Origin: Shimia isoporae
Lineage (GTDB): Bacteria; Pseudomonadota; Alphaproteobacteria; Rhodobacterales; Rhodobacteraceae
Direction: 5' to 3'
DNA: 64,000 bases
Assembly: GCF_004346865.1 (NCBI RefSeq)
Contig: NZ_SMGR01000004.1
Span: 186,001-250,000 of the forward strand
Part shown: one piece after another, positions 30,778 through 42,017 of the stretch
How the letters are laid out: every line of letters begins with the position of its first letter
Position numbering within the stretch: the stretch's first letter is position 1
The notes under the pieces: generated by a model
Database searches by the model: none
Told to the model about the DNA's origin: nothing
Seen by the model: only the letters and a program-made list of their open reading frames with translations
Program-made: the position numbers and the translations under genes

Positions 30778-30802
30778 CATCCAACAGGTGCGAGGTGCAG
30801 GC

Positions 30803-31807
30803 ATGCCTGATCCGAAGTTTACTGAGATCAAATATCGTGGCCCCGGGTCTCAGGACTTTATTGAGGTTGCCGTTGACGCGGGCATGGATGTCTCAGGCAT
30901 CCAGATCATTGTTTACAATCCGAGCGGCACGGTGCGGTCAAGCAACGGTATCGGTACGTTTGATGGCACGATGTTCGGACAGGATGTCTACTCGCTGGAT
31001 GCGCCGGTTCACAAGAATGGCGCGGTTGCTCTCGTGGTCGATGGAGTCGTTGTGGACTTCGTGTCGTTCGACAATGTGGTCACCGCGAGCGAAGGTCCGG
31101 CGGCTGGGCAAGTTTCGAGTCAGATCGGTTCCACGGGCAACAACCAAGGTCAATCGGTACAGTTGGACAACGACGGAAACTGGACGGCAGGCGCTCTGAA
31201 TGAAGGCACGATCCCATGTTTTCTGGTAGGAACAAGAATTGCGACACGTCGCGGCGAGGTGGCCGTCGAAAACCTGCGACCTGGCGATCATGTTATGGTT
31301 CGCGACGGTGGATTTGCACCGGTGCGTTGGATCGGCAGTTATACCACTGAAGCGCGCGGAGCTTCATTCGAGAAAGCCGCGCCCATCAAGATCCCGCGTG
31401 GCGCAATGGGAAAGGGGCAGCCAAGTCGCGATCTTTATGTTTCGCCAAACCACCGTATTTGGATGCGGGATGCCAGTTTCGAAATGCTGTTTGAGGCGCG
31501 GGAGGTTCTGATACCAGCAAAGCAACTGATCGGGTGGAACGGGATTTCCCAAGTAAGCTATGTGCCACAGCCTGAGTACTTTCACTTCCTTTTTGACCAA
31601 CATCAGATTGTGTTGTCGGACGGGTTGTTGACCGAAAGCTTTCATCCCGGCGAAGTCACGCTGGATCAGTTCCAGAACGAGGCCCGGGATGAATTGCTGC
31701 GGATGTTCCCGAATCTGATGGATGTGGCTGTGTCCGGCAAAACGGCCCGAAAATGTCTGAAGTCTTTTGAAGCCCAACTGGCACTGAATGCAAAATCAGT
31801 TGCCTGA
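30803..31807 (+). CDS. Hint-domain protein with N-terminal lamin-tail-like domain
   Basis: A 334-residue protein. Residues 1-135 resemble a lamin-tail (LTD-like) beta-sandwich (FTEIKYRGPGSQDFIEV, GVVVDFVSFDN). A Hint domain starts at Cys139 (IPCFLVGTRIATRRGEVAV), continues with LRPGDHVMVRDGG, VSPNHRIWM (the block-B His) and FLFDQHQIV, and ends about residue 290, with a short tail. The catalytic Cys and His are intact, but no C-terminal His-Asn is present, so hedgehog-like cleavage is possible and intein-type splicing unlikely. No signal peptide. Its 3' end overlaps the opposing WYL-regulator gene by 12 bases. Confidence 0.75.
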   Translation: MPDPKFTEIKYRGPGSQDFIEVAVDAGMDVSGIQIIVYNPSGTVRSSNGIGTFDGTMFGQDVYSLDAPVHKNGAVALVVDGVVVDFVSFDNVVTASEGPAAGQVSSQIGSTGNNQGQSVQLDNDGNWTAGALNEGTIPCFLVGTRIATRRGEVAVENLRPGDHVMVRDGGFAPVRWIGSYTTEARGASFEKAAPIKIPRGAMGKGQPSRDLYVSPNHRIWMRDASFEMLFEAREVLIPAKQLIGWNGISQVSYVPQPEYFHFLFDQHQIVLSDGLLTESFHPGEVTLDQFQNEARDELLRMFPNLMDVAVSGKTARKCLKSFEAQLALNAKSVA

Positions 31808-38029: not shown

Positions 38030-38746
38030 CTAGGCTGCATGCAGCAGTGCTCTGGCTTCTTGTTCTCGTAGGGACACGCGTGCCACAGGACCATATCCAT
38101 AGCCCATAAACCGATCGGTGTTGGGCATGTGCGAAAGGATTTCCTGCCGCGTATCGGCGTCGAACATGTCTAGTGTCTCGTGGCTGGGGTGGTAGCTTTC
38201 GCAGTCCAAGCCATTGGCACGGACAATTTCGTGCCGGTCGAAAAGCAGATGGACATACGTTACTGGCAGGCCGTCATCGCGGAGTTTGACGGAAGTGCCA
38301 TTCACAAGATCTCCTGCACGGATCAGCACTTCGCGTTCCCCGAAAAGGGTGGTGGCTGCATCAGATTGCAGCAAAACCCGGTGATTTCTGGAAAATGAAA
38401 TGGCATCGTGGTTGCCCAGCACACCTGCAGCGATTTCAACAGGAGCATCTTTGCCGGTGGCGAGGCGTCCGGATCGCCCGATCCATTGAAGTTCCTGATA
38501 CCCGTTGTCCCGTGTCAGAACTCGATCGCCTGGCGAAAGGGTTTCAATAGCGACCATTCCCTTCTGAGTGACGATCTGTGTACCGGCGACAAAACAAGGT
38601 ACGGATGTCTTGGAACAAGTCCCGACTTCTGGACGTCGCAGTGACGGAACCATAGTGGTCCGAACACTTTCGCCAAACGCCACGGGCAGTTCGCTTCCGG
38701 CACGGAATGCGGTGGCCTGTGTGGAATGGCCCAGCGAGTCGGTCAT
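38030..38746 (-). CDS. Hint-domain protein, short form
   Basis: A 238-residue protein. The Hint domain begins at Cys51 (VPCFVAGTQIVTQKGMVAI), has the LSPGDRVLTRDNG turn, the block-B His in FSRNHRVLLQ, and the late FDRHEIVRANGLDCESYHP segment, ending about residue 200. The N-terminal region of only 50 residues has no recognised fold. Catalytic Cys and His are present, with no C-terminal His-Asn. The ATG at 38746 follows GGGGGG; the frame's earlier start would add 17 residues. It is upstream of, and on the same strand as, the receptor-like gene. No signal peptide. Confidence 0.75.
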   Translation of the reverse strand: MTDSLGHSTQATAFRAGSELPVAFGESVRTTMVPSLRRPEVGTCSKTSVPCFVAGTQIVTQKGMVAIETLSPGDRVLTRDNGYQELQWIGRSGRLATGKDAPVEIAAGVLGNHDAISFSRNHRVLLQSDAATTLFGEREVLIRAGDLVNGTSVKLRDDGLPVTYVHLLFDRHEIVRANGLDCESYHPSHETLDMFDADTRQEILSHMPNTDRFMGYGYGPVARVSLREQEARALLHAA

Positions 38747-38953
38747 GAGTGCCCCCCGGCATAGTGTATTCGGCTGGTGTGGGCGGATTACCCGCACACC
38801 TGTCCCGATTGAAAAGATTGTTCAAAAGTGACGGTCAGGGGTTACCAAGTGGTGAGCAGGGCTCAACAAGTTGCCTAAACTTTTAGGTGTTGAAGGACCC
38901 TTTATGTCTCGCCGGTTGACCGAGGCGGTCCATGCGCGTTATGGCCTGCCGCC

Positions 38954-39331
38954 ATGAGCAACTCAAAGTCCGCCCCAAAGAAGAAATCGCGTCAGCAGGT
39001 TTTTACCTTGTTGGTCCAAGTTGGTCGTAAGGAAGACGATGGTCTTCCGGATGGGGCGACCGGTGGTGCCCTTATGATTTATGCAAGCGGCGTTGACGAA
39101 GCTGAGGCTGTTCGTGAAACCGTAGCGATCCTGAAGCAGGCAGATTTGAACCCGCTCGACGTGACGGGATACGGCACAATTGAGGAGCGTGAAGCTCAGG
39201 GTCATGAAATCGATCAGGCCGAACGCGATCTTATGCAGCGAGCGCTTGACGAGAACTCTGTAGTCGTTGCCCAGATGACGCCGTTTTATCATGGCGAAGA
39301 AAGCGACGGGGCGGATCAGCCGCAGCACTGA
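38954..39331 (+). CDS. Conserved-type hypothetical protein
   Basis: A 125-residue soluble protein. A basic N-terminus (KSAPKKKSRQQ) is followed by an alternating beta/alpha pattern (FTLLVQVGRKEDDGLP, GALMIYASGVDEAEAVRETVAILKQ) and an acidic C-terminus. This resembles a small ferredoxin-like or ACT-like fold, but I do not recognise a family. It is an island among Hint genes on the opposite strand, with its stop 12 bases from the end of the next Hint gene. Function unknown. Confidence 0.6.
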   Translation: MSNSKSAPKKKSRQQVFTLLVQVGRKEDDGLPDGATGGALMIYASGVDEAEAVRETVAILKQADLNPLDVTGYGTIEEREAQGHEIDQAERDLMQRALDENSVVVAQMTPFYHGEESDGADQPQH

Positions 39332-39343
39332 CTTTGTTTTTGG

Positions 39344-40438
39344 TCAGGCCGCACGCTGCGCAGCCAACGTCAAAGCCTCAAATTCTCTCAACACCGGGTA
39401 GGCCGTTCGCGAATGTTCGGGTAGGTCAACACGGGCGAACTGGCCGAGAAGGCTGGCGCGGAGGACATCCTTGCGACGTCGAATTCGTCCCAAATCGAGA
39501 CTTTCCAAATAGGTGCCGGCAACAAGAAGCGCATCGTGATCTGGCAAAATCAGTTGGCAATAAGTGACCAGCGGTTCGCTCTTGATTGGTTTGGCTGCGG
39601 TGCCGTGAAGCAAATGTCCTGCAGGCACAAGCACGTATTCAGATCCGAAAGTGTATTCCACTCGCGAACCGCCAATCACCAGCCGCTGTGTGGGCCCTAC
39701 TACTATCGGTTCTTGTAGCCCGAAGAATGGCGCGCGAAGGCGGATTGGCGTGAATTGGCCGGCGGCAGGGACAGATCGTTTGATGGTGTTGAGAACCGGC
39801 ACAATGTCGCCCTGAGTCGTCTGCACCAAATCGCCTCGTTTCAGCGATCCTGCAGGCACGTAGCCCTCCGCCGTCATAACCGGTGTATCGTTGGTCATTG
39901 TGGGCATCGGACCTACGGGTTCGACCCGGTCGCTCAGAGCAGCGTAGATCACGTCTGGCGAAAGCACGCGGGACAATTCATCGTGAACAAACTCGCACAT
40001 ATCCTCCGGCGACAACGCTACTGGATTGATCAAGTCTTTGACGGCTATCCGGAAGGTGCCGGGGCGTTCAACGCACAAACGTCCGCGGAATTGGTCCAGG
40101 TCCCAACTGTAGGTGATGCGAATGACGTCAGCGCGGCCTCCGGTGTCCAGATTGACCGCGGTATGAAAGGTCTCGCTTCCGCGGTTCAGAACCAAAACGA
40201 CTCCGCCGCCGGGAACTGCCTGCAAGGACAAGCGCACACCACTGCGTGTCTGAGGCGCATATCCCAGAAGCATTTGCGGTTTGTCATATGGCGAAACACG
40301 AGTTTCCACCACAAGGCTACCTGTTGTCATCGGCGCGCGCAGGTCTACGAGGTCTCTACCCGGTTTCTGTCCGTAGCGCGCCAGCCCGTCCAACCGAAAC
40401 AGGGTCCGTGTCTTGTCGATCAAAGCCAGCCAACTCAT
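39344..40438 (-). CDS. Degenerate Hint-domain protein
   Basis: A 364-residue protein. Residues 1-170 contain an unrecognised beta-rich domain, and 180-330 align to a Hint domain (DTPVMTAEGYVPAGSLKRGD, PDHDALLVAGTYLES). The catalytic residues seen in its neighbours are lost: the Cys position is Thr180 (PMPTMTNDT), and the block-B His is Gln in GPTQRLVI. It therefore cannot use the standard N-S acyl shift. It may be an inactive structural copy that still folds as Hint. It lies between two intact Hint genes on the same strand. Confidence 0.7.
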   Translation of the reverse strand: MSWLALIDKTRTLFRLDGLARYGQKPGRDLVDLRAPMTTGSLVVETRVSPYDKPQMLLGYAPQTRSGVRLSLQAVPGGGVVLVLNRGSETFHTAVNLDTGGRADVIRITYSWDLDQFRGRLCVERPGTFRIAVKDLINPVALSPEDMCEFVHDELSRVLSPDVIYAALSDRVEPVGPMPTMTNDTPVMTAEGYVPAGSLKRGDLVQTTQGDIVPVLNTIKRSVPAAGQFTPIRLRAPFFGLQEPIVVGPTQRLVIGGSRVEYTFGSEYVLVPAGHLLHGTAAKPIKSEPLVTYCQLILPDHDALLVAGTYLESLDLGRIRRRKDVLRASLLGQFARVDLPEHSRTAYPVLREFEALTLAAQRAA

Positions 40439-40448
40439 GCCTGTCCCC

Positions 40449-42017
40449 TCAACTCGCCAATGCCCAGTTGGCCATTGCGGTCACTTCGAATGTTTTCAAT
40501 CCCGGTCGTGCCATTTGGCCATAGCCGGTGCCGCCTTTGTTCTTCAGCTCGGGAAAAAGCGCGCAAAGTTCTTTGACAATTTCAGGATCGAAACTTGCGG
40601 AGGTCTGTGGTCCGGGCAGATAGCTTTCCGTGGCCAGTTTTTCCGAAAAGACGATCTGGTGGTCGTCAAAAAGCAAGTGATGGTATTCCACTGTACCACC
40701 TTCGAGTTGGCGGATCGTTTTGCCGTTCACGAGGTCTCGGGCTTTGATCAGCACTTCTTCTTCGCCGAACAGTAACTCGGACCATGCGCCGCTGATGAGG
40801 ACGCGGTGTAGTGGTGACAGAGTCAGGGCCCGGTGATCGCCAAAAGTGCCTTCGTCAATCAGGATCGGAGCGAACTTGCCTCGGGCATCAACCGTGCGCG
40901 ACCCGTGCCAGCGCACAGGCTGAGGGCCATTGTCCATCGTTTCGACGAGGTCATCTACGGCGATATGTTCGACTGGCACTTCGCCAAATGGCGTCAGGAT
41001 GAAGGTTCCTGCTGCAAAACAGGGTGCCTGGTTGATCGTGATAAAGCCGGTGTCGGTCGTGCCAGTCGAGCTTTCGACCTGATAGGTGAGGTTGACGGTT
41101 TCTTCATCGCTGTCGCCTTCGACGGTCACGGTGCCGTCGGAGTTCAGTGTGATGATCTGGCCGCTGCCAAGCGTGATCGGAACCCCAACCACAGCTGTCT
41201 GTCCGGCGATGTGGGTTATTGTGAGGGTGCCGCCGGTGGTATTGGTGTCGTTTGCCAGTAGGTTGACGGTTTTGGTTCCGTCAGGAGCAACGTTCACCGT
41301 ATCGGTGTTGGCGATCAGGCTGGTTTGCAAAGAGTCCGCTGCAATCAGCAGGCTACTGTCGTAGCTGCTGTCAGACACGTCGGCGATTATGATTTGCAGG
41401 GTGTTTATGTCGTTGGCGTTGACCGGAATGGTCAACGTCATGGTCATGGTGAAGCCGTCCATTTCGGTGTTGTAGGCATCACCGGTGTTGTCGATGAACA
41501 GGCTTTCGTTTTCGCCGCCGTTAATGTTTCCGGGGTCAACATCTCCGTTGCCGATTTCCATCGGCACAAAGACCCCATTGATCGAAACTGCCACAAAATC
41601 CTGATAGATCGAGTTCACGTATTCCGGGTATTCTTCGGATGCGAACACGAACTGCATGGTGAGCGTATCACCTGTCGGAATGAACTCCACCTCGAGCATC
41701 GCAGCGTCATAGGTATTCGCACCGGCAAGCGCGTTCAGGGTCGGGTCGTTGTCGACTCCGTTCATGTTTGAGGACTGGTTGGTGTCCTGGTTGTATTCCC
41801 CGTTACGGTTGGTGAAATTGCGCGCGTTGCCGGTCGATAGAATTACGCCGCTGTCTCCCGGCGTGACACCGGGCGAGATCGTATCGCCATTGGTATAAAC
41901 GCCGGACGCATTATTGTCGCCGGTGTAAGTGGCGCTTTCGATACTTACACCTTCGCCAAAGATGGTTTGTGCCATCTCTTCCGCGGTCGCGCCGCGGTCA
42001 ACTGGTAGTCTAGGCAT
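40449..42017 (-). CDS. Choice-of-anchor-L plus Ig-like protein with C-terminal Hint domain
   Basis: A 522-residue protein. Residues 10-230 carry a choice-of-anchor-L-type domain (LTMQFVFASEEYPEYVNSI, AVSINGVFVP). About 236-330 resembles an Ig/cadherin-like repeat (TVNLLANDTNTTGGTLTI), and the Hint domain starts at Cys333 (APCFAAGTFILTPFGEVPV) with LSPLHRVLIS and FDDHQIVFSE. Catalytic Cys and His are intact. There is no signal peptide, although the repeats are typical of secreted proteins, so a non-Sec route such as type I secretion is possible. The start at 42017 is chosen by domain content and a weak AGGG site. Confidence 0.75.
   Translation of the reverse strand: MPRLPVDRGATAEEMAQTIFGEGVSIESATYTGDNNASGVYTNGDTISPGVTPGDSGVILSTGNARNFTNRNGEYNQDTNQSSNMNGVDNDPTLNALAGANTYDAAMLEVEFIPTGDTLTMQFVFASEEYPEYVNSIYQDFVAVSINGVFVPMEIGNGDVDPGNINGGENESLFIDNTGDAYNTEMDGFTMTMTLTIPVNANDINTLQIIIADVSDSSYDSSLLIAADSLQTSLIANTDTVNVAPDGTKTVNLLANDTNTTGGTLTITHIAGQTAVVGVPITLGSGQIITLNSDGTVTVEGDSDEETVNLTYQVESSTGTTDTGFITINQAPCFAAGTFILTPFGEVPVEHIAVDDLVETMDNGPQPVRWHGSRTVDARGKFAPILIDEGTFGDHRALTLSPLHRVLISGAWSELLFGEEEVLIKARDLVNGKTIRQLEGGTVEYHHLLFDDHQIVFSEKLATESYLPGPQTSASFDPEIVKELCALFPELKNKGGTGYGQMARPGLKTFEVTAMANWALAS

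What the first reader, a model, noticed from the sequence alone, without database searches (positions are those of the whole stretch)
38030..42017. Tandem cluster of Hint-domain proteins with different N-terminal passengers
Three Hint genes sit together on one strand here, and a fourth lies at 30.8 kb. Hint cores are similar while the N-terminal parts differ completely (short tail, beta-rich, anchor-L plus Ig-like, lamin-tail-like). Each intact copy ends without a His-Asn, so hedgehog-like cleavage and attachment of the N-terminal part to an acceptor is more plausible than intein splicing. No signal peptides are seen. The passenger variation suggests a module that displays different surface domains.
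Basis: partly seen in the sequence, partly recalled or inferred. Interest (0 to 1): 0.75.

Follow-up and report, generated by a model that had tools for sequence, protein, structure and literature searches.

The report
A conserved dead Hint protein
In a marine Shimia-like genome rich in Hint proteins, one of three neighbouring Hint genes has lost the residues needed for self-cleavage yet is kept beside the same gene in many related bacteria, which suggests that it does a job other than cleavage.

Summary
The Hint genes are real; the cluster is not uniform. The genome is Shimia-like (nearest named record S. haliotis, 89%) and has 17 Hint_2 places. The gene at 40449-42017 is choice-of-anchor-L + Ig-like + an intact Hint_2. 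The gene at 38030-38797 is an intact Hint without a conserved passenger.

The middle gene, 39344-40438, is the find: a Hint pseudoenzyme with a confidently predicted Hint fold behind a lectin-like domain. Cys1 is Thr, the block-B His is Gln, the block-F Asp is Pro. Among 98 non-redundant sequences of this gene (the window's included) none has Cys1 or that His; among 59 of the upstream gene 57 have Cys1 and 59 the His. A match exists in 25 of 25 genomes of the genus; dapE lies beside it in 79 of 80 named loci, and an anchor-L Hint gene directly upstream in 62 of 80.

Hedgehog-like cleavage is plausible for the intact copies and improbable for the middle one. Attachment to an acceptor is untested. 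I favour a non-catalytic partner role for the dead Hint; that is inference.

The parts
40449..42017 (-). Active-type Hint protein 'W4', 522 aa: choice-of-anchor L + Big_9 + Hint_2
   Evidence: Cys333, His404, His447, Asp451, His453 all present
41328..41978 (-). choice-of-anchor L domain of W4
   Evidence: NF038133, 166 bits
41031..41315 (-). Ig-like (Big_9) domain of W4
   Evidence: PF17963, 27.7 bits
40611..41024 (-). Hint_2 domain of W4 (Cys1 codon 41019-41021; block-B His codon 40806-40808)
   Evidence: PF13403, 157.8 bits; residues
39344..40438 (-). Pseudo-Hint 'W3', 364 aa: lectin/laminin-G-like N-terminal domain (predicted fold) + Hint_2 without catalytic residues
39494..39898 (-). Hint_2 match of W3 (the Cys1 place is Thr180, codon 39899-39901, just before the match; the block-B place is Gln251, codon 39686-39688)
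   Evidence: PF13403, 90.7 bits; residue mapping
38030..38797 (-). 'W2': intact Hint_2 with a short N-terminal part that is not conserved
   Evidence: 157.5 bits
38954..39331 (+). Conserved 125-aa ORF between W3 and W2, no Pfam or NCBIfam match; a neighbour, probably not part of the system
30788..31807 (+). Fourth Hint_2 protein, intact, N-terminal domain without a family match (start probably Met at 30803)
   Evidence: 171.9 bits
42320..43465 (+). dapE, divergent neighbour that marks the place of W3 and W4 in relatives
   Evidence: TIGR01246, 377.4 bits (cut-off 361.8)

Best explanation
The intact Hint_2 genes encode proteins with a C-terminal self-cleaving module: Cys1 attacks the peptide bond before it, helped by the block-B His, and the N-terminal passenger is released or passed to a nucleophile; without a C-terminal Asn there is no splicing (inferred from residues). 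The middle gene belongs to a separate, conserved family: a Hint pseudoenzyme whose lectin-like passenger should stay attached. Because it usually starts right after an active-type anchor-L Hint gene, and because every genome in which I found it has at least five Hint_2 places, I think it most likely works as a non-catalytic partner of active Hint proteins, for instance an adaptor or regulator that binds them or their cargo through the kept Hint fold. Shown by computation: predicted fold, residue loss, conservation, gene order. Inferred: cleavage by the active-type copies, secretion, and the partner role.
For: Residues: of 98 non-redundant W3 sequences (the window's own included) 0 have Cys1 (T 35, S 35, G 20, A 7, L 1) and 0 the block-B His (Q 94, A 4); Asp451 is Pro in 96 and Ala in 2; of 59 W4 sequences 57 have Cys1, 59 the His, 59 the Asp. 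No Cys is invariant or 90% conserved in 30 W3 sequences, so no class-3-like moved Cys. Constraint: 36 invariant columns in those 30 (the window's own and 29 at 41-51% identity to it); against S. haliotis dN is 0.073 for W3 and 0.077 for dapE, dS saturated. The 19 W3 rows of a 57-row tree are one clade, 100/100. Fold: mean pLDDT 90.3; matches to a BIL (2lwy, TM 0.67 by target) and to laminin-G and CBM40 folds. Presence: a match in 25 of 25 genomes of the genus. Place: dapE beside it in 79 of 80 named loci; a W4-type gene directly upstream in 62 of 80, in 52 of these with a gap of 16 bases or less. Company: the 84 family genomes with a W3-like match have 5 to 19 Hint_2 places, median 12 (11 if W3 itself is taken off); the 114 without have a median of 6.
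Against: W3 persists without W4: 18 of 80 loci lack a W4 directly upstream. Of these 18 genomes, 3 have a W4-like protein with its passenger: in two it lies just downstream of W3 (L063, L084) and the third (L082) is cut by a contig end; the other 15 showed none at E<=1e-30, so W4 is not an obligate partner. The link with Hint_2 number is not corrected for kinship, and counts of about 18 are lower bounds because at most 18 candidates were scored for most genomes. No interaction was modelled. Among the 57 weaker family matches 6 keep Cys1 and 4 keep Cys1 and His; two of the four look like ordinary active paralogues (L210, L212), two (L196, L202) are unexplained; 11 keep the His without the Cys. 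So the loss is not universal in the wider family. Catalytic residues were not read one by one in the 25 genomes. Secretion is inferred only.
Confidence: 0.45

Rival explanations
1. W3 works on its own: the dead Hint is only a structural or export module, and the protein delivers an uncut lectin-like domain while its active paralogues shed theirs.
For: W3 stays beside dapE where no W4 is found (15 of 80 loci without any); the C-terminal tail is kept in the 30 aligned orthologues; the Hint fold is predicted with high confidence.
Against: Close gene coupling with W4 in 62 of 80 loci; no direct evidence of export for any of these proteins.
Confidence: 0.35
2. All three cluster genes are hedgehog-like self-cleaving proteins that attach their passengers to an acceptor.
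For: Cys1 and block-B His present and no His-Asn in W4, W2 and the 30.8 kb gene; a tail after the Hint is kept in most own-genome copies. Thr or Ser, found at position 1 in 70 of 98 W3 sequences, can act as a nucleophile in some inteins (recalled).
Against: W3 sequences lack Cys1 and the block-B His in 98 of 98, and 28 of 98 have Gly, Ala or Leu at position 1; no acceptor or adduct-recognition region was identified; plain hydrolysis would give the same sequence picture.
Confidence: 0.12
3. W3 is a decaying gene or an artefact.
For: Loss of catalytic residues; 1 of the 80 loci (L113) has a W3 frame of only 134 aa.
Against: Open frames, a match in 25 of 25 genomes of the genus, own invariant positions, dN like that of dapE.
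Confidence: 0.02

Closest known systems
Bacterial intein-like (BIL) domains
   Same: Hint fold; the best sequence match of an own-genome Hint profile in the PDB is the Clostridium thermocellum BIL 2lwy (E 2.6e-6); BILs give mainly cleaved products (passages of PMC7664689); RTX flanks are known for BILs (recalled from Amitai et al. 2003, not read)
   Different: Here the Hint is C-terminal with a tail after it and has Glu-Ser where inteins have His-Asn; W3 has no catalytic residues
Hedgehog C-terminal (Hog) domain
   Same: C-terminal Hint after exchangeable N-terminal domains; uses only the first acyl shift (passages of PMC7664689); Hog genes evolve new N-termini, some very short (abstract passages of PMC2362128)
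   Different: No sterol- or adduct-recognition region shown; prokaryotic; no signal peptide seen
Predicted intein in the Ruegeria pomeroyi exoprotein YP_168868
   Same: Hint-type domain in an RTX protein of a related marine bacterium, without signal peptide; peptides of its region are missing from the secreted protein (passages of PMC2953401)
   Different: Near the N-terminus, followed by more protein, and ends in His-Asn; a splicing type
Hint_2 (PF13403) in marine Rhodobacteraceae
   Same: Same Pfam family; Hint and RTX reported as over-represented in strongly responding Rhodobacteraceae (passages of PMC12487129)
   Different: In the passages seen that paper counts domains and says nothing of dead copies or gene order

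Membership tests
Hint_2 (PF13403) | Profile score above the curated cut-off | tested here: met
   171.9, 157.5, 90.7, 157.8 bits against 28.4
Self-cleaving Hint (W4, W2, 30.8 kb gene) | Nucleophile at position 1 and block-B His | tested here: met
Self-cleaving Hint (W4, W2, 30.8 kb gene) | Cleavage in vitro or in vivo | not testable with these tools
   needs protein
Self-cleaving Hint (W3) | Conserved nucleophile at position 1 and block-B His | tested here: not met
   position 1 is Thr in the window and T, S, G, A or L across 98 sequences; block-B His absent in 98 of 98
Class 1 intein | C-terminal His-Asn and protein continuing after it | tested here: not met
   Glu-Ser instead in the four window proteins (place matched by eye); Hint at the C-terminal end
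Class 3 intein (for W3) | Conserved internal Cys | tested here: not met
   no Cys invariant or at 90% in 30 sequences
Hedgehog Hog domain | Lipid attachment guided by a recognition region after the Hint | not testable with these tools
   a tail is kept in most own-genome copies, role unknown
Pseudoenzyme | Fold kept, catalytic residues lost, gene conserved | tested here: met
   inactivity itself not assayed
Type I secretion substrate | No signal peptide, C-terminal signal, exporter in the genome | tested here: inconclusive
   no signal-like start in 16 proteins; one PrtD-type exporter gene over its cut-off and an HlyD-type gene; the signal itself not shown
choice-of-anchor L (W4) | Profile score above cut-off | tested here: met
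   166 bits against 27

The most novel reading that the evidence does not exclude
The dead Hint is a dedicated partner in trans of the active Hint_2 set: it uses the kept Hint pocket to bind active Hint domains or their thioester products and to steer where the released passenger goes, and its lectin-like domain chooses the surface. That would be an enzyme-pseudoenzyme pair in the Hint superfamily.
Probability: 0.2. Interest if true: 0.8.

Novelty: new variant of a known kind. Interest (0 to 1): 0.55.

Why it matters
Hint domains are studied as self-cleaving and self-splicing machines. A branch that has lost the chemistry and is kept at one locus across many marine bacteria would show that the fold has a second use, and it comes with a natural comparison: in most loci an active-type Hint gene is next door. 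It could also help explain why these bacteria keep so many Hint proteins (10 to 18 places in each of 25 genomes of the genus).

Tried and rejected
Rejected: the middle copy as an active Ser/Thr-type Hint (28 of 98 sequences have Gly, Ala or Leu at position 1 and none has the block-B His); a class-3-like moved Cys; a pseudogene; W4 as an obligate partner of W3. One origin or two for the dead Hints of this genome could not be decided (AU p 0.253).

Led nowhere: the model of W4 was poor (mean pLDDT 62.7) and was not searched. The promoter and terminator scan gave no more than shuffles (1 against a mean of 2.4; 7 against 5.8). In one search the dapD row gave a meaningless dN/dS and was dropped; the W3, W4, W2 and dapE rows stand, dS not measurable for W3 and W2. 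The first orthologue alignment read some loci on the wrong strand and was replaced. The 17th Hint_2 place (27.1 bits, under the cut-off, stops inside) was left out of the protein comparisons. In one search a truncated W3 (L113) and an over-long frame (L077) were dropped by the length filter, and one W4 frame by its own; 109 W3 rows became 98 and 62 W4 rows 59 after clustering at 97%. In one search one of 25 loci (L138, whose frame holds a stop) was read in a wrong frame and is not counted. Foldseek's hits for W3 include receptor-binding domains of clostridial neurotoxins at 7-9% identity and TM about 0.25; I read these as the shared lectin-like jelly roll, not as kinship.

One search was read by the tool as 'hint2' and gave histidine-triad papers of no use. 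'Hint domain' with 'Roseobacter' gave none; PF13403 gave two papers, of which I saw passages of one. Searches listed 15 of 1,633 and 10 of 92 papers. No title or abstract start that I saw named an inactive Hint family. The library lacks most subscription journals, and the BIL papers themselves were not read.

Full report
What is in the window. The gene at 40449-42017(-), here W4, has choice-of-anchor L, an Ig-like Big_9 domain and Hint_2. The gene at 39344-40438(-), W3, starts 10 bases after it. The gene at 38030-38797(-), W2, is separated from W3 by an ORF of 125 aa on the other strand with no Pfam or NCBIfam match. A fourth lies at 30788-31807(+). The cluster lies between dapD and dapE. The nearest named record by W3 is Shimia haliotis, 89%, so I call the genus Shimia; records very near the window may have been left out of that list.

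Context in the genome and group. The genome has 17 Hint_2 places, 16 over the cut-off. The 25 genomes of the genus (the window's own included) have 10 to 18 each, and 173 of 198 genomes drawn from the family have at least one. In the 16 proteins the Hint is C-terminal, with 182-210 residues from about the Cys1 position to the end. Two carry RTX-type repeats (L016 by Pfam; L009 by eye), one LTD, two anchor-L, one a ConA-like match under its cut-off (L019); most others have no named passenger. None of the 16 starts with a signal-peptide-like stretch by a crude hydropathy measure. Of 113 ABC-type matches to the PrtD model in the genome one is over its cut-off (670.4 bits; the control genomes all match under it), with an HlyD-type gene beside it (341.5 bits, cut-off 208.65). 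RTX proteins are exported by type I systems through a C-terminal signal, and nine predicted RTX proteins were noted to have weak Hedgehog/Intein similarity (passages of PMC3034196). A shared export route is plausible; it is inference.

The middle gene is a pseudo-Hint. On joint alignments its Cys1 is Thr, the block-B His Gln, the block-F His Gln and the block-F Asp Pro. I took 30 sequences from family genomes, the window's own among them, and 80 from named records. After the length filter and clustering at 97%, 98 W3 and 59 W4 sequences remain. Cys1: 0 of 98 W3, 57 of 59 W4. Block-B His: 0 of 98, 59 of 59. Block-F Asp: 0 of 98 (Pro 96, Ala 2), 59 of 59. W3 has its own invariant set instead (36 columns in 30 sequences). 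The 19 W3 rows of a 57-row tree form one clade with 100/100 support. Between the window and S. haliotis W3 has dN 0.073 with dS saturated, like dapE at 0.077. This looks like purifying selection on a protein without the chemistry.

How wide. W3-like matches at E<=1e-20 occur in 84 of 198 family genomes, 87 matches in all (at most 10 candidates were scored in a genome). I looked at all 87: 30. In the 30 none has Cys1. In the 57 six have Cys1, four of them with the block-B His as well; two of the four (L210, L212) are second matches in genomes that have a closer W3 and look like ordinary active paralogues; L196 and L202 are the exceptions that may be active. Eleven of the 57 keep the His without the Cys. 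So 81 of 87 lack Cys1. In the genus a W3 match is in 25 of 25 genomes at 48% identity or more; their residues were not read one by one.

Place and neighbours. In the 80 named loci dapE lies upstream on the opposite strand in 79 (the other, L082, is at a contig end) and a W4-type gene directly upstream in 62, with gaps of -4 to 115 bases, 52 of 62 at 16 or less (the two widest gaps depend on the chosen start or a broken frame). In the genus W4 is directly upstream in 22 of 25 (read from positions). A Hint match within 5 kb downstream of W3 was found in 19 of 80 loci, 15 of them with anchor-L in the same frame; the one in L113 may be the rest of its broken W3. In the window and in S. haliotis that place is taken by W2, 76% identical between the two over the Hint and tail, while the N-terminal part does not align. 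I read W2 as an anchor-L Hint gene that lost its passenger; that is inference. Against a strict W4-W3 pair: 18 loci have no W4 directly upstream; of those genomes three hold a W4-like protein with its passenger, two just downstream of W3 (L063, L084) and one in the genome of the cut locus L082; the other 15 showed none.

Structure. The W3 model is confident (mean pLDDT 90.3, 30 sequences). PDB matches fall into laminin-G, CBM40 and other lectin-like folds and into BIL and intein folds; that the first belong to the N-terminal half and the second to the Hint is my reading, since the table gives no ranges. A profile of 16 own-genome Hint regions finds the C. thermocellum BIL first, and the alignment puts an Ala of that chain on our Cys1 position.

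Mechanism. For the intact copies, N-terminal cleavage through a Cys1 thioester is the best reading. Glu-Ser stands where inteins have His-Asn, by an alignment that I made by eye against the splicing motif quoted in PMC2953401. Whether the thioester is hydrolysed or passed on is unknown. For W3 I favour a non-catalytic partner role. The arguments are the gene coupling with an active-type Hint and the company of other Hint_2 genes: median 12 places (11 without W3) in 84 genomes with a W3-like match against 6 in 114 without (not corrected for kinship). The main rival is a free-standing role for an uncut lectin-like protein.

A second dead Hint. Another Hint-only protein (contig C1, L020) has one match in each of 25 of 25 genomes of the genus, with a stop inside in one. 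In the 24 rows aligned in the right frame the Cys1 place reads Gly and the block-B place Gln or Glu, by eye; in many of them a Cys and a His lie one residue earlier, though the window genome's own copy and its nearest kin lack that Cys, so a shifted active site in some is not excluded. Whether it shares an origin with W3 is open.

Verdict. What deserves attention is the dead one.

Noticed in passing
L020:6375-7040(-), own genome contig C1:2293374-2294039: A second Hint protein without the usual catalytic residues, 222 aa with almost no passenger, matched once in each of 25 of 25 genomes of the genus; beside a gene that looks by eye like an acyl-CoA synthetase. Many relatives have a Cys and a His shifted by one residue.
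   Followed up: partly
window 38954-39331(+): A 125-aa ORF with matches of about 70-90% identity in most of the 80 named loci and no Pfam or NCBIfam match.
   Followed up: no
L018:5881-6897(+): An own-genome Hint_2 protein with Ser at the Cys1 place.
   Followed up: no
L196 and L202: W3-like proteins that keep Cys1 and the block-B His; possible active relatives of the dead family.
   Followed up: no
W4 relatives, for example L027: Two of 59 W4 sequences have Tyr or Ser at position 1 (rows not traced), and in the separate alignment of 23 sequences L027 has Tyr, so the active family may also be losing copies.
   Followed up: no
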